A stretch of DNA of 64,000 nucleotides from an uncultured Prevotellaceae bacterium (GTDB lineage: Bacteria; Bacteroidota; Bacteroidia; Bacteroidales; Bacteroidaceae). Every line of letters starts with the position of its first letter. Position 1 is the stretch's first letter. Under the pieces are notes generated by a model. The model saw only the letters and a list, made by a program, of their open reading frames with translations, did not search any database and had not been told where the DNA came from. The translations under genes and the position numbers were made by a program. The stretch is from the NCBI GenBank assembly GCA_947167515.1, contig CAMVIM010000001.1, positions 62,001-126,000 on the forward strand, in the 5' to 3' direction. Shown here piece after piece: positions 23 through 54,813 of the stretch.

Positions 23-137
23 GGCATAGTGTGTCTCGGTGCAACGTCGTGCAAATTGCAATAGGAGTGGCGTACCAAATGTATGTTGTACGGCATACAA
101 TTTATATATGCAACGGCGTTGCACGTAGGGGAAGAGT
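23..137. repeat. 23-bp-period degenerate repeat array (five units)
   Basis: Five consecutive 23-bp units start at 23, 46, 69, 92 and 115. Most open with GGC or GTC followed by a core like GTACAAAT, and several end in AAC or TAC. The units are too diverged for a classical tandem repeat, but the anchor C recurs at 25, 48, 71, 94 and 117. The fourth unit closely resembles the third unit of the array at 51052-51143. It lies just beyond the pflA stop. I see no gene in 1-174. Confidence 0.7.
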
Positions 138-174
138 GGGGTGGGGAATGAAGGGAGTGTGGAGTGTCGGTCTT

Positions 175-3302: not shown

Positions 3303-3331
3303 CAAAGGTACGAAAAACTAACAACTAACAA
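3303..3331 (-). promoter_or_regulatory. pflB promoter
   Basis: On the minus strand TACCTTTG (3303-3310) matches the Bacteroidetes -7 element TAnnTTTG, with TTG at 3329-3331 as -33. It ends 34 bp before the chosen pflB start codon and fixes that start. Confidence 0.75.
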
Positions 3332-3415
3332 CTAACAACTAAAAGTAAAAGTATGCTTTTGACCACAAAAAAGAAAGCTAACTCTTATACTTTTAATTTT
3401 TAGTTTTTAGTTTTT
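3313..3415. repeat. Imperfect inverted repeat of aactaa words upstream of pflB
   Basis: The left part (3313-3352) repeats aacaacta-type words and ends in aaaagtat. The right part (3387-3415) is its imperfect reverse complement, with repeated tttttag words. It overlaps the -33 region of the pflB promoter. Function unknown. Confidence 0.6.
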
Positions 3416-3430
3416 CACTTGAAAATCTTT

Positions 3431-3522
3431 CTCGCTCGTCATCACCATTCTTTCTCACCCGTCGCCTCTGTACTCTCTCACTCGTTACCTCCTTGTCCTC
3501 TTACTCGCAGCCTCTCACCTAT
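3431..3522. repeat. 23-bp-period pyrimidine-rich array (four units)
   Basis: Four units with a ctc-n-ctcgt core start at 3431, 3454, 3477 and 3500, exactly 23 bp apart. The array runs directly into the tttagc array that follows. The whole 3269-3708 gap contains no recognisable gene, only the pflB promoter and these repeats. Confidence 0.75.
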
Positions 3523-3695
3523 TTAGCCTTGCAATAAAAATCATTTTAGCCTTGTTACAAGAATTAATTTAGCGTTGGGACACAATTCAGTTTAGCGTTG
3601 GAATAACTTTGTGTCCCAACGCTAAATCACTTTCTATTCCAACGCTAAACTGATTCGTATTCTAAGGCTAAATTGATTTTAGTTCCAAATCAAAA
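3522..3695. repeat. 23-bp-period array with inverted second half (4 + 4 units)
   Basis: The core tttagcSttg occurs in direct orientation at 3522, 3545, 3568 and 3591. Its reverse complement occurs at 3617, 3640 and 3663, with a degenerate copy at 3686. All spacings are 23 bp and the layout is symmetric about position 3608. Flanks of unit 3 match inverted unit 1 (GGGACACAA), and flanks of unit 4 match inverted unit 2 (GGAATA). The last inverted units run up to a small open reading frame at 3709. Confidence 0.85.
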
Positions 3696-3708
3696 TCAAT
3701 TGGGAGTT

Positions 3709-3879: not shown

Positions 3880-3883
3880 GTGG

Positions 3884-3891
3884 TATCTTTG
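3884..3891 (+). promoter_or_regulatory. -7 element of relB/yafQ-like operon
   Basis: TATCTTTG matches TAnnTTTG and lies 28 bp before the antitoxin ATG at 3920. Confidence 0.65.
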
Positions 3892-3919
3892 CAAACGAAA
3901 AATCAATAACTAAAACGAT

Positions 3920-4126
3920 ATGAATGTAGCAGTACCATGCCAGACCGTAAACTTGACATTGCCTCATGCAGATGTGGGTTTGCTGAAGTCCCTCTCGAAG
4001 AAGATGGGCTGGAGTGTTCGTGTAGAGCGCAAAAGTGGCATAGAAAAGGGATTGGATGACATCCGTAAAGGGAACCTTTATCATGCCAAGAACTCCGAAG
4101 ACTTGTTGAAACAGATATTAGGTTAA
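3920..4126 (+). CDS. Type II antitoxin, RelB/DinJ-like
   Basis: A 68-aa protein with a short N-terminal beta-strand region (VNLTLPHADV), then a helical stretch and a C-terminal tail (LYHAKNSEDLLKQILG), the usual layout of antitoxins that bind DNA with the N-terminus and wrap the toxin with the C-terminus. The assignment rests mainly on position: it ends 2 bp before the ATG of a clear YafQ/RelE-type toxin. It probably autorepresses the promoter at 3884. Confidence 0.7.
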   Translation: MNVAVPCQTVNLTLPHADVGLLKSLSKKMGWSVRVERKSGIEKGLDDIRKGNLYHAKNSEDLLKQILG

Positions 4127-4128
4127 CG

Positions 4129-4401
4129 ATGTACGAGGTCATCTATACTGGTCAATTCAAACGGTCACTGAAACTATGTGTCCGTCGTGGGTTGGACGTC
4201 ACAGCCTTTACAACTGTGCTTGACATCTTGCAAGAAAAGGGCGAGTTGCCCCAAAAATATCGTCCACACAAGCTTCAAGGAAAGTACAAAGGCTGTTGGG
4301 AGTGCCACATCCAACCAGATTGGTTGTTGATATGGCAACAGAATGACCGCCAACTATACTTGGTTTTGGTTGATACTGGCTCCCATTCAGATTTGTTCTA
4401 A
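4129..4401 (+). CDS. YafQ-family mRNA interferase toxin (RelE/ParE fold)
   Basis: A 90-aa protein with YafQ-family landmarks: a start like MYEVIYTGQFKRSLK, the central LPQKYRPHKLQGKYKG-like block, WECHIQPDWLLIW, and a terminal GSHSDLF corresponding to the catalytic C-terminal His-x-x-Leu-Phe of the family. Such toxins cut mRNA on the ribosome. It is the second gene of the antitoxin-toxin operon and is full length. Confidence 0.9.
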   Translation: MYEVIYTGQFKRSLKLCVRRGLDVTAFTTVLDILQEKGELPQKYRPHKLQGKYKGCWECHIQPDWLLIWQQNDRQLYLVLVDTGSHSDLF

Positions 4402-4416
4402 TGGCATAATATGAAT

Positions 4417-4674
4417 TTAACAAACCAGAAACAAAGAAAATATGACTTTCCGTATCACATTTCGCGAACGGGCTATGACCTTCAGAAACAAGTCAGCAGC
4501 AGTAGTCGATGCTTTCTGCCGTAATATTTCCTCATATTCAAACAGGATTTCTGTAGAGAGACAAAGCGTGTAGCGATTCTCCAGGAAAGCAGAAAAAAGG
4601 AAATTAAACTTGCTTTGTGCACCAAGTATAGGCAGCAAGCAGTTTGTGTCTAACACAATTCGCAAATGTTTCAT
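4417..4674 (-). pseudogene. Truncated PIN-domain toxin
   Basis: The 85-aa product starts MKHLRIVLDTNCLL with the first PIN aspartate (Asp9) and keeps EILFEYEEIL. It ends after RKVIFSLFLVC, losing the second half with the remaining acidic residues. The intact paralogue at 21470-21889 (139 aa) shows what is missing: the DDDKFVDCA and GADYIVTEDSHF segments. The break lies near 4430, where the convergent YafQ module begins. Without the C-terminal acidic residues it should be inactive as a nuclease. Confidence 0.75.
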
Positions 4675-21917: not shown

Positions 21918-22541
21918 TCAACGCTTCACAAACACCTTATGGCTTCCGTTCCCATCAGCCTGGATGCCACTATTGGGGTCAGCACAAAATGCCTTCAGCT
22001 CACGCGTCGCCTTCGAACGGCTCAGTCCAGTCAGCTGTGTGTAATCCCTTATCTGCATATAGCCATTCTTTTCTATATACTCCAATGCCATCCGTAGCCG
22101 TTCCTCCATCGTGGAAGACACCCCGAGACGCTCCTTCATGTTCTGTACTTGATGCAGTGTCGTTGAATTGCGCAAATCATTCAGCCATTCTCTGTCAGGC
22201 GAGAAGTTGATTTTCTTGATGTACACCCCGCTCTGGTTCGCGCCCACCTTCTTTCTCGCCTCCACATCCTCTATGTCTTCTTCACTCAACTGCCCCAAAA
22301 TCAAGTCGAAGGTGCCAAACCCCTCTATCTTCACAGAATGTCCATTCGACAAAAAGGCATTCAAGGCATCGGGTAGTTCACTCATCACTCCCTCAATCGT
22401 GTGACGGCTCATGTTTGTCATCGTCATGAACCAACTCACAATTGTCTTGTGCGGAATGCAGTTGACGTGCTTCACCTTCGGGTAATACTTCTTTTCGCCA
22501 GTCTTTTGTAGGTCTGGCATCTCTTGCATGATGTAATCCAT
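21918..22541 (-). CDS. HU-like DNA-binding protein with C-terminal winged-helix-like region
   Basis: A 207-aa protein. Residues about 15-130 resemble the HU/IHF-like family of Bacteroidetes (VKHVNCIPHKTIVSWFM; GHSVKIEGFGTFDLIL as the beta-arm region). Residues about 150-207 look like a winged helix (YMQIRDYTQLTGLSRSKATRELKAF). It may act as a nucleoid-associated or mobile-element-linked protein. A longer frame to 22616 exists, but the promoter at 22599-22606 lies inside it, so the start is set at 22541 (MDYIMQEMPDL). Confidence 0.82.
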   Translation of the reverse strand: MDYIMQEMPDLQKTGEKKYYPKVKHVNCIPHKTIVSWFMTMTNMSRHTIEGVMSELPDALNAFLSNGHSVKIEGFGTFDLILGQLSEEDIEDVEARKKVGANQSGVYIKKINFSPDREWLNDLRNSTTLHQVQNMKERLGVSSTMEERLRMALEYIEKNGYMQIRDYTQLTGLSRSKATRELKAFCADPNSGIQADGNGSHKVFVKR

Positions 22542-22598: not shown

Positions 22599-22629
22599 CA
22601 AAGATAGCGCATCCACTTCACTCTTGCAA
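22599..22629 (-). promoter_or_regulatory. Promoter of HU-like gene
   Basis: TATCTTTG (22599-22606, minus strand) with TTG at 22627-22629, spacing 20 bp. Confidence 0.75.
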
Positions 22630-22633
22630 GCAT

Positions 22634-22733
22634 ATCAACTAAAATTCTAAAGTTTGAGTTGCAAAATGCAAACTTTGAGTTCTAAAACCCAAACCTTGAT
22701 TTCTGCAACTCAAACTTTAGAATTGAAGTTGAT
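22634..22733. repeat. 21-bp-period array (four units) bounded by a 30-nt inverted repeat
   Basis: Units with core AAACyTTGAGTT start at 22649, 22670, 22691 and 22712, spacing 21 bp. The ends pair: 22644-22663 is a perfect 20-nt reverse complement of 22704-22723, extendable to 22634-22663 with 22704-22733 at two mismatches. Confidence 0.8.
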
Positions 22734-22735
22734 AC

Positions 22736-22850
22736 GCCACACACCCATTTGTAAATGTGCCGTGAACGTAATGGTGGTTGTGCCGTACACATAATTGTGG
22801 ATATGTCGTACACTTGGTTGTGGCTGTGTAGTATACAAAAACTCAAACAT
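22736..22850. repeat. 23-bp-period array (five units)
   Basis: Units starting GCC, GTC or GTA with core CGTACAC begin at 22736, 22759, 22782, 22805 and 22828, each 23 bp apart. The family resembles the arrays at 23-137 and 51052-51143. The 22542-22997 gap holds no gene, only divergent promoters and these two arrays. Confidence 0.8.
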
Positions 22851-22863
22851 ATTTGGTTTTTCC

Positions 22864-22965
22864 CTCACTTAATCGTACCGTTGGCTTCGCCGAAGGTGCT
22901 CACGCTCGACAATAAAAGTGAAAAAAGTGTTTTTTCCCTTTGTATTGTGCTCACTTAATCGTACC
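22864..22965 (+). repeat. Duplicated promoter segment
   Basis: ctcacttaatcgtacc occurs at 22864-22879 and again at 22950-22965. The upstream copy continues taccgttg, a damaged -7 element; the downstream copy continues as a perfect TACCTTTG. Confidence 0.7.
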
Positions 22966-22969
22966 TTTG
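22939..22969 (+). promoter_or_regulatory. Promoter of 5'-nucleotidase gene
   Basis: TTTG (22939-22942) and TACCTTTG (22962-22969), spacing 19 bp, 28 bp before the ATG. Confidence 0.8.
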
Positions 22970-24741: not shown

Positions 24742-25722
24742 ATGCCTTATTGTAGTAAATGTGGACACAACATCCCTTCCAATGTACGGTTCTGCACCTC
24801 TTGTGGTGCCCCCGTGAATGGGAGTGATCAGAATAATCTGAATAATCAGAGTGCTCAAAGTACTCTGAATCCTCCTTCACCTGCGTCCCCACCACCACCT
24901 CCTCCTCCTTCTGCAGCTCCACCTCCTCCTCCCACACCGGGTAGTCAGCCAGGGTCGTACCGTGTGCAGATGATGCGCTACAAGGAGGCTTCGCAGCCAC
25001 CTCGGTACAGCACGACTCCACCGCCTTCGTATGTGCAGCAACAGCAGGCGCAAAGGAGACAGAGTGCGCCGAGGCGCAGCGGCAGTTCTTTTGGTGGCTG
25101 TTTCCGACGCGGTTTTCACATTCTCACGGCAGCCATCGCCATGATTGCCTCGCTGTCGTGGGGCATCAGGTCTGCTTTCCCCAATTTCAATCTGAACTTT
25201 TTCCAAGGGGGCATCCCTGGCATCTTCAGCAGTTGCAGTGGCGGCAAGCATGAGGGTGGGGGAGTGTTGAGCAGCAGCAAAAACAGTTTTGAGGGTACGC
25301 TGTTGGGTAAGGAAGGCTATGAGCGTGCCATCGACGATGCGGTGGCACTGGATATTCTGACGGAGATGGGTGTTGCCGACAAGATGACGGGCGTTGACCA
25401 CACGCTGGCTTTCGGCACCTATAAAATTGCTTATTCTGCACAAAAGATGGACATGGAGGGACACACCGTTGCCTTCCGCTTCGACCCACCCACGAGCGAC
25501 GATAAGCGCATTCTGGCTGACTTCGTCATGCTGGGCGACGGCAAGGAGCGGATGACGGGCGTGGTGGGCTATGGTGGAAGCACTCTCTTCATCATTTACA
25601 AGGACTTGGAAGATGTTGGCACGAAGAGAAAACCTGACATAGTGGTGTGTGCCAATGCTGACGGTAAGTCGTTCTCGGTCTATGATAAGGGCGAGGAGAT
25701 GCTGAGAATGGAACTGGAGTAG
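24742..25722 (+). CDS. Zinc-ribbon, proline-rich membrane protein (copy 1)
   Basis: A 326-aa protein starting MPYCSKCGHNIPSNVRFCTSCG, a two-CxxC zinc ribbon. A Pro-rich linker (runs of PPPPPP, about residues 48-75) follows, then a Gln/Arg-rich stretch and a hydrophobic segment (FHILTAAIAMIASLSWGI, about 128-146). A C-terminal domain (about 190-326) has mixed alpha/beta character and no family I recognise. It is the first gene of a two-gene unit with giant protein A, 26 bp upstream of it. Two other proteins here (29747-30241 and 43357-44211) share the zinc ribbon plus Pro-rich plus membrane layout. Function unknown. Confidence 0.85.
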   Translation: MPYCSKCGHNIPSNVRFCTSCGAPVNGSDQNNLNNQSAQSTLNPPSPASPPPPPPPSAAPPPPPTPGSQPGSYRVQMMRYKEASQPPRYSTTPPPSYVQQQQAQRRQSAPRRSGSSFGGCFRRGFHILTAAIAMIASLSWGIRSAFPNFNLNFFQGGIPGIFSSCSGGKHEGGGVLSSSKNSFEGTLLGKEGYERAIDDAVALDILTEMGVADKMTGVDHTLAFGTYKIAYSAQKMDMEGHTVAFRFDPPTSDDKRILADFVMLGDGKERMTGVVGYGGSTLFIIYKDLEDVGTKRKPDIVVCANADGKSFSVYDKGEEMLRMELE

Positions 25723-45707: not shown

Positions 45708-45812
45708 AGAGTGAAAAGTGAAAAATCTAAGTAACCCGCCATTCGGCTTGTTGCCTTTTCATTTGCAAAAGTAACTTAGATTTTTCACTTTTCACTTTTC
45801 ACTCTTCACTTA
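45701..45812. repeat. Long inverted repeat of gtgaaaa words at the GT2 3' end
   Basis: The left arm (45701-45732) includes the GT2 stop codon. The right arm (45774-45812) is its reverse complement with one additional 7-bp ttttcac word. The centre is about 41 nt. Confidence 0.85.
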
Positions 45813-51051: not shown

Positions 51052-51143
51052 CCCGTTCCATTTACATGTTTAACGCCGTTTCATATATAAATGGTACGGC
51101 GTACAATTTGAATATGCAACGACGTTGTGTGTAGGGTGGTAAC
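51052..51143. repeat. 23-bp-period array (four units)
   Basis: Units start at 51052, 51075, 51098 and 51121, with core CGTwyCAATTT and ends in AAC/TAC. Unit 3 matches unit 4 of the array at 23-137 at nearly every position. It lies between two convergent terminators. The 50926-51233 gap holds no gene. Confidence 0.8.
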
Positions 51144-53001: not shown

Positions 53002-54813
53002 TCATTCTTGGCTGAACTTGAGCAACGTTTCCCGGTAGCTGGTGAAAAGACCTGAACGCGAGATAAAGCCTAAGTAGAGATTGTTCTCGTCCACCACAGG
53101 AAGGTTCCATGCTTTGGTTTCCTTGAACTTCTGGAGTGCCACTTTGGGTGAATCGTTAGCCATGAGCACAGCTGGAGGGTCTTTCATGAAGGTGCCGGCA
53201 GTGTATTGGCGATACAGCTCTGGGCGGAACATGTAGAGACGGACGGAGTCGAGAGAGATGACACCCAAGAGTTTGCCGTTGGCGCCCACCACGGGGAAAA
53301 TGTTGCGGTGTGATTTGGCAATGACGGCAATGAACTTACTGAAAGGCAAATCGGGGGTGACGGACTTGTAGTCTTTCTCGATGAGCGATTCCAGGTTTAG
53401 CACCGTGAGGATAGCACTGTCCTTATCGTGGGTGAGCAGCTGGCCTCGACGTGCCAGACGCATGGCATAGATACTATGTGGTTCGAAAATGTTGATGGTG
53501 AGGTAGGAAACGGCCGAGACTATCATGAGAGGAACGAAGAGGTCGTAGCCTCCAGTAAGCTCGGCGATAAGGAAGATGCCCGTGAGAGGGGCATGCATCA
53601 CACCCGACATGAGTCCAGCCATGCCATAGAGTCCGCAGTTTTTGGGCGAAAGGTAACAGGAATCCCCCATGACAAGCCCCAACCCCATGTCCCAGAGGTT
53701 GGCGAAAATGAATCCGGCGATGCAACCGAGGAAAAGGCTGGGGGCAAACACGCCACCGCAGCCACCGCCACCATTGGTTGCCGTGGTGGCAAACACCTTG
53801 AAAATGAGCACTAACCCTAAGTAGATGAGCAGATTGCCATCATCGTTGTAGAAAAGGGTGTTGTGCATGATGTCCCGTTCTGGAGCCTCGTTGATGAGTT
53901 GGTTGATGACATCGTAACCTTCTCCGTACATGACGGGGAAGAAGTAAATTAAAATACCCAGTACGATGGCTCCAAGCAGGAACTTATAGCGTTTCTTCGT
54001 GATTTTGCCAAACACGCCCTCAAACCAGTTCATGGCGCGGGTGAAGTAGAGGCTGACCAGTCCGCAAGCTATGCCCAGGAGGATGCAGCCTGGGATGATG
54101 TCGATGGTGAACGCTTTGTTGAGGCTGAAGTCAAACAGGGGAGCTGTGCCGTAAAAGGCATAGGACACGCACACCGACGTGATGCTGGTGACCAGCAGAG
54201 GAAGGAGTGACGAGAAGCTTAGGTCGAGCATCAGCACCTCGAGCACGAAGACCAAACCGGCTATAGGTGCCTTGAACACGCCAGACACGGCTCCGGCAGC
54301 ACCACAGCCCACCAGAAGCATCAAGGTTTTGGGTGGCAGGTGAAAGCGTTTGCCGAAGTCAGACCCCCAGGCCGCACCCGTCAGGACAATAGGCGCCTCG
54401 GCTCCAACTGAACCACCGAAACCAATGGTGATGGCGCTGGCAATGACGCTTGACCAGCGGTTGTGCGACTTGATGCGGCTTCTGCCTCGCGACATGGCAT
54501 AGAGAATCTTGGTCACGCCATGACTGATGTCGCCTCTGACAATATACTTGACGAACAATAGGGAAAGGAGGATGCCGACAGCAGGAAAAATGAGGTAAAG
54601 CAGATTGGTGTGTTCGACGGCAAAGCCTGAGGTGAGCAGATGCTTGATTTCCTCAATCAGCGTCTTCAGCACAAAGGCTGTCAGTCCAGTGAATACACCA
54701 ACCATCAGGCTGAGCATCAGAACGATTTGCCGCTCTGTATGGTCGCCTTTCAGCCATTCGGTGATGGCATTGATGAGTCTGATTTCTTTACGTCTAATTC
54801 CTGTGAAGTTCAT
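53002..54813 (-). CDS. ClC-family chloride channel/antiporter with CBS pair
   Basis: A 603-aa protein with about 10-12 membrane helices and ClC signatures: GSVGAEAPIV (gating glutamate retained), GAAGAVSGVFKAPIAG and GGGGCGGVFAPSLFLG. Two CBS domains lie at about 455-600 (LPFSKFIAVIAKSHRNIFPVV; KAWNLPVVDENNLYLGFISR). Its start lies one base past the tsaC stop, suggesting coupled translation. Channel versus H+/Cl- exchange cannot be decided here. Confidence 0.92.
   Translation of the reverse strand: MNFTGIRRKEIRLINAITEWLKGDHTERQIVLMLSLMVGVFTGLTAFVLKTLIEEIKHLLTSGFAVEHTNLLYLIFPAVGILLSLLFVKYIVRGDISHGVTKILYAMSRGRSRIKSHNRWSSVIASAITIGFGGSVGAEAPIVLTGAAWGSDFGKRFHLPPKTLMLLVGCGAAGAVSGVFKAPIAGLVFVLEVLMLDLSFSSLLPLLVTSITSVCVSYAFYGTAPLFDFSLNKAFTIDIIPGCILLGIACGLVSLYFTRAMNWFEGVFGKITKKRYKFLLGAIVLGILIYFFPVMYGEGYDVINQLINEAPERDIMHNTLFYNDDGNLLIYLGLVLIFKVFATTATNGGGGCGGVFAPSLFLGCIAGFIFANLWDMGLGLVMGDSCYLSPKNCGLYGMAGLMSGVMHAPLTGIFLIAELTGGYDLFVPLMIVSAVSYLTINIFEPHSIYAMRLARRGQLLTHDKDSAILTVLNLESLIEKDYKSVTPDLPFSKFIAVIAKSHRNIFPVVGANGKLLGVISLDSVRLYMFRPELYRQYTAGTFMKDPPAVLMANDSPKVALQKFKETKAWNLPVVDENNLYLGFISRSGLFTSYRETLLKFSQE

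What the first reader, a model, noticed from the sequence alone, without database searches (positions are those of the whole stretch)
3431..3695. Intergenic arrays of degenerate units with a strict 23-bp period
Two arrays join here. Four ctc-n-ctcgt units (3431, 3454, 3477, 3500) run into four direct tttagcSttg units (3522, 3545, 3568, 3591) and then four inverted ones (3617, 3640, 3663, 3686), every step 23 bp. Five more arrays of four to six units occur elsewhere in the window (23, 22649, 22736, 35538, 51052), six of the seven at 23 bp and one at 21 bp. Unit sequences differ between loci while period and copy number are kept. The units have no spacers as in CRISPR and no coding capacity. I know of no named element with this architecture. 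The strict phase suggests a templated amplification process or a protein that binds every two helical turns or so.
Basis: seen in the sequence. Interest (0 to 1): 0.85.

Follow-up and report, generated by a model that had tools for sequence, protein, structure and literature searches.

The report
Phased arrays beside HU-like genes
This Bacteroidales genome is strewn with short non-coding DNA arrays built from a few units repeated every 21 to 24 bases, and about half of the examined genes for a poorly understood histone-like (HU-related) protein family carry such an array at their promoter, so the arrays may be DNA landing strips of these proteins.

Summary
The arrays are real. In 864 kb of this genome, 45 of 53 non-coding tandem arrays (periods 12-60 scanned) have 20-24 bp periods, 25 of them 23 bp; loci from outside the order give 6 of 47. 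They are dispersed whole elements: the 8-unit array at 3522 has four further copies, and unit order is kept in the three full ones. The closest named thing is P. gingivalis BrickBuilt, a MITE around a 23-nt minisatellite. No Y1 (REP) transposase, consistent target duplication or insertion sequence with the same ends was found.

New link: of 17 intact HU-HIG (PF18291) genes examined, 8 have a 20-24 bp array upstream, against 39 of 612 other genes (p 8e-6). The arrays differ from gene to gene; the 3522 element is a relative of the one at HU-HIG gene C4:163297. The 21-bp array before the window's own HU-HIG gene recurs in 8 of 8 relatives examined, ending 33-43 bp before a -7 promoter box.

Best reading: phased multi-site operators for HU-HIG paralogues, also scattered genome-wide. 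Binding is inferred; most arrays are not beside an HU-HIG gene.

The parts
3426..3514 (.). array of four CTC-n-CTCGT units, 23-bp period, non-palindromic; abuts the next element
   Evidence: lag score 24; no RNA fold, z +1.0; window 3453-3541 matches C5:37393-37480 at 80%; similar-looking units in L056, L060 and L166, judged by eye
3522..3696 (.). A element: 4 direct + 4 inverted TTTAGCSTTG units, steps 23,23,23,26,23,23,23
   Evidence: four further copies in this genome (C41, C6, C24, C4), the C4 one at the promoter of HU-HIG gene C4:163297
39..131 (.). E element: about 4 units of 23 bp (ACGGCGTAC...), downstream of the pflA-like gene
   Evidence: 38 matches in the genome to window 30-140, some of them both strands of one place; consensus from 28 placements, 27 distinct
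51054..51136 (.). second E element in the window
22642..22718 (.). 21-bp array, 4 units, dyad-symmetric; its promoter-side end lies 35 bp before the -7 box of the HU-HIG gene
   Evidence: a 21-bp array at the same place in 8 of 8 relatives examined
22756..22836 (.). 23-bp array, about 4 units, further upstream of the same HU-HIG gene
22599..22606 (-). TAnnTTTG (-7 box type) between array and HU-HIG gene; that this is the Bacteroidetes promoter motif is recalled
21918..22541 (-). HU-HIG / HU_rel gene; start re-set from the listed GTG at 22616 to the ATG at 22541, because the promoter-like box lies just inside the longer frame's leader (inference)
   Evidence: Pfam PF18291 E 2.9e-15; NCBIfam TIGR01201 E 5.9e-14, below its cut-off

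Best explanation
The arrays are dispersed non-coding elements made of about 3-8 repeats of a short, often palindromic, protein-binding site at a 20-24 bp pitch. They work as multi-site operators for paralogous HU-HIG proteins (HU-type domain, in the window's protein followed by a probable winged helix). Each paralogue concerned has its own array type at its own promoter, where it would regulate itself, and related arrays are scattered elsewhere as further binding places. SHOWN: the period bias, dispersal as whole elements for families A and E, enrichment at HU-HIG promoters, recurrence of one operator in relatives with a similar distance to the promoter box. INFERRED: that HU-HIG proteins bind the arrays, roughly one dimer per unit, bending or wrapping the DNA, which would set the pitch near two helical turns. 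UNKNOWN: how the elements are copied to new places.
For: Period: 45/53 own, 25/36 congeners (sister species included, so partly the same arrays twice), 11/17 other Bacteroidales loci, against 6/47 outside the order. Whole-element dispersal: A units at the same position agree 0.80, 0.80 and 0.75 between the window copy and three others, against 0.67 within a copy; E 0.70 against 0.55 (28 placements). HU-HIG link: arrays upstream of C1:84164, C6, C18, C31, C3:178659, C23, C42 and C4:163297; 8 of 17 against 39 of 612, p 7.8e-6; 8 of 19 p 2.1e-5; 8 of all 22 matches p 7.3e-5; in stretches drawn without regard to arrays 3 of 6, p 0.005. The arrays at HU-HIG genes have relatives elsewhere: C31's (F24) at 12 places in the 864 kb sample, C23's at 3, C6's at 3 besides itself, C1's 21-bp array at 2 besides itself, C4's at 4 besides itself in the genome. 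C18 and C31 share a protein start (MLIVRKAKKKIVRP) and have related units (GGTGAGA, GGTGTGA) (by eye). Geometry: in all 11 21-bp arrays found before HU-HIG genes (3 own paralogues, 8 relatives) a TAnnTTTG box begins 33-43 bp after the array end. Arrays lie upstream of the box there but between box and gene in C18 and C31, which favours DNA binding over a signal in the transcript. F24 units show no compensatory pairing.
Against: 9 of the 17 genes have no array by the test (C8 has a 20-bp one that the microsatellite filter drops; C7 had only 260 bp upstream). 0 of 1 HU-HIG-like gene in congener stretches and 0 of 2 in other-genus stretches have one. The HU-HIG gene in L070 (G036) is about 2 kb from the A array there. 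Only 3 HU-HIG genes of the sampled stretches have arrays upstream; 72 proteins neighbouring the 45 sampled arrays included only 2 HU-HIG. The array beside C3 had no relative in the sample and that of C42 one. The 8 relatives are not independent. Families D and E have no HU-HIG partner identified. No binding data exist.
Confidence: 0.55

Rival explanations
1. Selfish MITE- or REP-like elements with a minisatellite core, moved by an unknown transposase; their place beside HU-HIG genes is incidental or reflects insertion into such promoters.
For: Many dispersed copies, mostly with unrelated flanks; D and F24 share outer arms CTTYCRYAGCCTCWAAA and are about 99-101 bp long although their units differ, as BrickBuilt and MITEPgRS share ends; presence/absence between sister species (G012 D array absent in G010).
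Against: No consistent flanking direct repeat in 26 F24 and 9 D copies; the 22 places with the arms at 1 mismatch or fewer are all D or F24 arrays, so no autonomous element with these ends was seen; no Y1 transposase. Does not explain the similar distance to the promoter box and the recurrence in 8 of 8 relatives.
Confidence: 0.25
2. RNA or single-stranded DNA hairpin elements (bidirectional terminators, attenuators or fold-back elements).
For: Several fold strongly: 150 nt of A z -10.6, one D -10.8, one F24 -6.1, window 21-bp array -10.6.
Against: The 3426 array does not fold (z +1.0) and one E folds weakly (-2.95) yet both keep 23 bp; F24 pairing is at or below shuffles in all tests but one, unit 2 with unit 3, which is within chance; no clear preference for convergent gaps in F24 or E; no Rfam match.
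Confidence: 0.08
3. Neutral minisatellites from replication slippage and template switching, with the period set by the replication machinery.
For: Identical adjacent units; arrays over-represented in intergenic sequence unaligned between sisters, 9 of 16 against 4.1 expected.
Against: Unit order is kept across dispersed copies and HU-HIG promoters are enriched; slippage gives neither.
Confidence: 0.08

Closest known systems
BrickBuilt MITE of Porphyromonas gingivalis (PMC4596501)
   Same: Bacteroidales, intergenic, dispersed, 23-nt imperfect repeats without spacers, unit number varies between strains, ends shared with another MITE whose internal repeat is unrelated; one of 19 (BrickBuilt_14) lies beside a PF00216 DNA-binding gene (that PF00216 is the HU/IHF family is recalled).
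   Different: BrickBuilt repeats are direct and reach 22.8 copies with long leader and tail; here arrays are mostly 3-8 units, often palindromic or dyad-symmetric, in many families per genome with periods 21, 23 and 24.
REP/BIME elements with RAYT transposases (PMC2817692 and PMC3733652: search listings and abstract starts only)
   Same: Short dispersed palindromic units in clusters; that RAYT genes carry copies of their own element is recalled.
   Different: No Y1 transposase in this genome; the candidate partner is an HU-type DNA-binding protein.
Lrp/AsnC multi-site operators (passages of PMC10201364 and PMC2995911)
   Same: 13-17 bp imperfect inverted repeats spaced two (or three) helical turns, 3-5 sites, about 100 bp wrapped by interacting dimers or an octamer.
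   Different: A working analogy only; no Lrp gene was sought here and the genes linked are HU-HIG.
IHF/HU family
   Same: Partner proteins belong to it by Pfam and, below cut-off, by NCBIfam TIGR01201.
   Different: HU is described as not sequence-specific (passages of PMC5683647); these units look sequence-specific and are stacked in phase.

Membership tests
BrickBuilt MITE | 23-nt tandem repeats without spacers, dispersed, intergenic | tested here: met
   (some own arrays are 21 or 24 bp, and 4 of 16 lag-23 arrays fall in ORFs of the simple map)
BrickBuilt MITE | leader/tail with terminal inverted repeats of the GAGACCTTTGCA type and homologous repeat sequence | not tested
   the ends were read in the paper but not searched for here; the arms found are CTTYCRYAGCCTCWAAA
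MITE in general | terminal inverted repeats | tested here: inconclusive
   shared arms in D and F24; arms of the other families not established
MITE in general | target site duplication | tested here: inconclusive
   no consistent direct repeat of 7 or more bases beside 26 F24 and 9 D copies; the true ends are unknown and shorter duplications were not tested
MITE in general | autonomous partner with the same ends | tested here: not met
   all 22 places at 1 mismatch or fewer are D or F24 arrays; draft of 74 contigs, 98.85% complete
REP/BIME | RAYT (Y1_Tnp) gene in the genome | tested here: not met
   PF01797: 0 matches
CRISPR | identical repeats separated by unique spacers of regular length | tested here: not met
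   units degenerate, no such spacers, by inspection
Structured RNA families (Rfam 15) | match at gathering score | tested here: not met
   0 matches in window and 8 loci
Operator of HU-HIG proteins (proposed) | array at the promoter of the cognate gene | tested here: met
   8 of 17 genes; 8 of 8 relatives for one gene
Operator of HU-HIG proteins (proposed) | binding by the protein | not testable with these tools
   needs gel shift or ChIP

The most novel reading that the evidence does not exclude
Bacteroidales carry sets of mutually orthogonal HU-HIG/array pairs: each HU-HIG paralogue reads its own phased array code, regulates itself through it, and its array spreads through the genome as a self-dispersing landing strip that wires new genes or folds the nucleoid. 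It would be a REP-RAYT-like partnership in which the partner is a histone-like protein and not a transposase, with the lineage-specific pitch (21, 22, 23 or 24 bp) set by the protein.
Probability: 0.25. Interest if true: 0.92.

Novelty: new variant of a known kind. Interest (0 to 1): 0.76.

Why it matters
HU-HIG proteins are numerous here (22 matches in this genome) and I know of no DNA target for them (recall; the searches I made are listed under Tried and rejected). If the link holds, it gives paralogues a readable target, offers a reason why non-coding repeats in Bacteroidales cluster at 20-24 bp, and turns a class of overlooked repeats (BrickBuilt perhaps included) into a genome-wide regulatory or architectural system that gel shift and ChIP can test directly.

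Tried and rejected
REP mobilised by RAYT: rejected, no Y1 transposase. Terminators: not supported by gene orientation (F24 11 tandem, 8 divergent, 7 convergent, 1 undetermined of 27; E 10, 13, 6, 1 of 30; baseline gaps 128, 59, 43). Among the 30 E rows, L214 and L221 had wrong end coordinates in my script because they lie at contig ends, and L222 and L237 are one locus. Hairpin selection: not supported for F24. Islands: one 7.5-kb insertion with restriction-type genes lies between two arrays in G030 and is absent in G027, where the arrays are adjacent (gene types judged by eye); a single case, not pursued. Neighbour families: 72 of 73 array neighbours scanned (one 1533-aa protein left out); the only families matched by more than one protein were LRR_5, HU-HIG and two carboxypeptidase-regulatory domains, 2 each; the random control set was drawn but not scanned. 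One search was a failed test: my pattern had the wrong spacing (0 hits even in the own genome), so it only supplied handles. A first jackhmmer from one seed was too narrow. A single-sequence AlphaFold model of the window HU-HIG protein was poor (mean pLDDT 47.7); only its C-terminal part (about residues 170-230) is modelled at pLDDT around 60-79 and looks winged-helix-like. In one search the rule for the five genes outside the stretches had been applied by eye; one search applied it by script to 20 of the 22 matches and gave the same 8 (not examined: C2:1812, second of a pair, and C24:27681, below cut-off). Literature searches were made, in the open PMC library only; of the listed papers I saw titles and abstract starts, and none of these mentions arrays linked to HU-HIG genes. 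The 2017 paper that I recall as defining the HU-HIG clade was not among the papers listed and was not read.

Full report
WHAT WAS CHECKED. A lag scan (match +1, mismatch -1, threshold 18) over 464 kb of the own genome found 16 arrays at lag 23, 12 at 24, 10 at 21, 1 at 22 and none at 25-27; one dinucleotide shuffle of the same sequence gave none at any lag from 12 to 60. Split by a simple ORF map (9.7% non-coding), the lag-23 arrays are 12 non-coding and 4 coding. Of the seven arrays in the window, four are strong, one moderate, and two weak on their own; one of the weak ones is a member of a confirmed family, the other (35538) stays unproven.

HOW GENERAL IT IS. Keeping non-coding arrays, removing microsatellite-like ones and taking periods 12-60, 45 of 53 in 864 kb of the own genome fall at 20-24 bp (20: 2, 21: 9, 23: 25, 24: 9, 22: 0); 25 of 36 in 514 kb of congeners (23: 18; this set holds sister species, so some arrays count twice); 11 of 17 in other Bacteroidales loci (22: 6; close relatives of the window species may be among them); 6 of 47 in 936 kb of loci from outside the order, largely Clostridia. 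In stretches of other genera of the family 6 of 12, all 22 bp; other families of the order 3 of 7; other orders of the class 3 of 6. The pitch looks like a lineage trait, 22 bp in the samples of other genera and 23, 21 or 24 bp in this genus. Units are significantly palindromic in 14 of 45 own arrays (p <= 0.05), so palindromy is common but not universal; the period is the common feature.

DISPERSED ELEMENTS. The 3522 element (family A) has four further copies in the genome (C41, C6, C24, C4), and its exact unit pair occurs in 2 of the other 44 genomes of the genus (3 of 45 with the own). Its form, 4 units, a 26-bp centre step, 4 inverted units, recurs across species, with variants 6+4, 3+4 and 2+6. 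Outside the array the copies are mostly unrelated, except that the C41 and C6 copies share about 420 bp including flanks at 85% and so are not independent. Taking the four full copies, units at the same position agree better across copies (0.80) than different units within a copy (0.67); for the window copy against the other three the values are 0.80, 0.80 and 0.75 (orientation was chosen to maximise the match, and L005 was nearly ambiguous, 0.75 against 0.73). The element therefore spread as a whole. Family E (two copies in this window) has 38 matches and 0.70 against 0.55 in the same test. Family F24 gives 99 forward and 92 reverse matches to its 17-base core at up to 2 mismatches, with 0 for the reversed pattern; 26 distinct three-unit copies were in the DNA held. 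F24 and family D share outer arms and a total length of about 99-101 bp although their units are unrelated. An exact F24 core occurs in 16 of 45 genus genomes (in some only once), and D unit pairs in 9 of 301 family genomes, all of this genus.

TURNOVER. Between sister species some arrays are kept (G010/G012 at 25064/24551; G030/G027 at 53387/49115), some are present in only one, and one unit is doubled in one sister. Arrays lie in unaligned intergenic sequence more than random intergenic windows do (9 of 16 against 4.1 expected, simulated P 0.004; the arrays are not all independent, and array X of G030/G027 counts as unaligned although it is plainly homologous by eye). In the window the gap between the pyruvate formate-lyase gene and the FGGY kinase gene is about 2 kb and holds the arrays and small toxin-antitoxin-like genes, where the close relative L079 has a short gap, judged by eye.

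THE HU-HIG LINK. The genome has 22 PF18291 matches. I took as 17 genes those without stops, over the cut-off and not second of a tandem pair. By the same rule as the control (period 20-24, score >= 16, within 420 bp, microsatellite-like dropped) 8 of the 17 have an array upstream of the HU domain; a ninth (C8) has a 20-bp CCTAGG array that the filter drops; the one second-of-pair gene and the two broken genes examined have none. Among other genes of the own stretches 39 of 612 do (there measured from the first start codon). Fisher p is 7.8e-6 for 8 of 17, 2.1e-5 for 8 of 19 with second genes of tandem pairs, 7.3e-5 for 8 of all 22. In stretches not chosen for arrays it is 3 of 6 (p 0.005). Negative rows: 0 of 1 in congener stretches and 0 of 2 in other-genus stretches; the HU-HIG gene near the A array of G036 is about 2 kb away.

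The eight arrays differ: 21-bp AAAGTTTGAGTT plus a 23-bp array (C1, this window), 21-bp ATTCATAGAATGAAT plus a 23-bp array (C6), 24-bp GGTGAGAGTCTCACC (C18), the F24 family itself (C31), 21-bp ATAAGTTACA (C3), 23-bp CGTACCCCTCGGGGTACG type (C23), 23-bp ACCGCGTTCG type (C42) and the A element (C4). Most have relatives in the 864 kb sample: C31 12 places, C23 3, and besides their own place C6 3, C1 21-bp 2 and C18 2 (both of them F24 arrays); that of C42 has one and that of C3 none. C18 and C31 share the protein start and have related units, as expected if protein and site evolved together.

GEOMETRY AND RECURRENCE. I examined the upstream regions of eight relatives with a DNA match to the window's HU-HIG gene (all that one search listed; its list was cut). 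All eight have a 21-bp, about 4-unit array before the gene. In these eight and in three own paralogues, a TAnnTTTG box starts 33-43 bp after the array end, so the array stops just outside the presumed promoter. In C18 and C31 the array follows such a box by 20 and 27 bp. In C23 the box is 109 bp after the array, in C4 it overlaps the array's end, and for C42 none was found in the range scanned. A DNA-binding regulator fits these positions; a transcript-borne signal fits only those downstream of the box.

MECHANISM. HU-type proteins are dimers that bend DNA (established knowledge, recalled). A palindromic unit of about 15 bp repeated every 21-24 bp could hold one dimer per unit, and 3-4 of them would bend about 70-100 bp into a compact structure, as described for Lrp-type proteins on sites two helical turns apart (passages of PMC10201364 and PMC2995911). 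This step is inference. F24 units show no significant compensatory pairing between half-sites, units or arms, which argues against selection for a hairpin although some arrays fold strongly.

COMPARISON. BrickBuilt (PMC4596501) is the nearest named element and may be the P. gingivalis version: it shares period, dispersal and shared ends with different internal repeats, and one of its 19 copies is beside a PF00216 DNA-binding gene; one case proves nothing. Membership in MITEs or REPs is not claimed: no consistent target duplication, no partner with the same ends and no Y1 enzyme were found.

LIMITS. Gene calls are simple ORF maps; the genome is a 74-contig draft; relatives are unnamed and related to one another; the HU-HIG test came after seeing two cases in the sample, though the gene list itself was drawn by Pfam from the whole genome independently of arrays. 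Most arrays lack an HU-HIG neighbour, and their role as targets is conjecture.

Noticed in passing
window 22837-22969: Very common repeat of the genus with a promoter-like end (CTTAATCGTACCTTTG) and CTTCGCCGAAGGTGCTCACGCTCG, matched many times in many congeners, sometimes in tandem.
   Followed up: no
G030 C12 37962-45073 against G027 C5 40794-41058: A 7.5-kb insertion with restriction-type and Fic-like genes (by eye) sits between two arrays in one species; in its sister the two arrays lie next to each other.
   Followed up: partly
upstream of HU-HIG genes C13:21170, C7:125717 and C26:15787: These HU-HIG genes lack 20-24 bp arrays but have another inverted repeat of the type ACCACAGATTAAGCGGATT...AATCCGCTAAATCCGTGGTT just upstream.
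   Followed up: no
window 3316-3342 and 45782-45811; L059 7977-8076: 7-bp microsatellites (AACTAAC, TTTTCAC, CAACTGT) near and within genes; they also cause some 14-, 21- and 28-bp lag hits.
   Followed up: no
L080 13151-13215 and L084 13016-13081: In two other Bacteroidales the sequence after the pflA-like gene, where this window has an E element, carries 22-bp arrays with unrelated units close to a contig end.
   Followed up: no
window 3880-4420: Small toxin-antitoxin-like gene pair (by eye) beside the arrays in the gap between the formate-lyase and kinase genes; not present in the short gap of L079.
   Followed up: no
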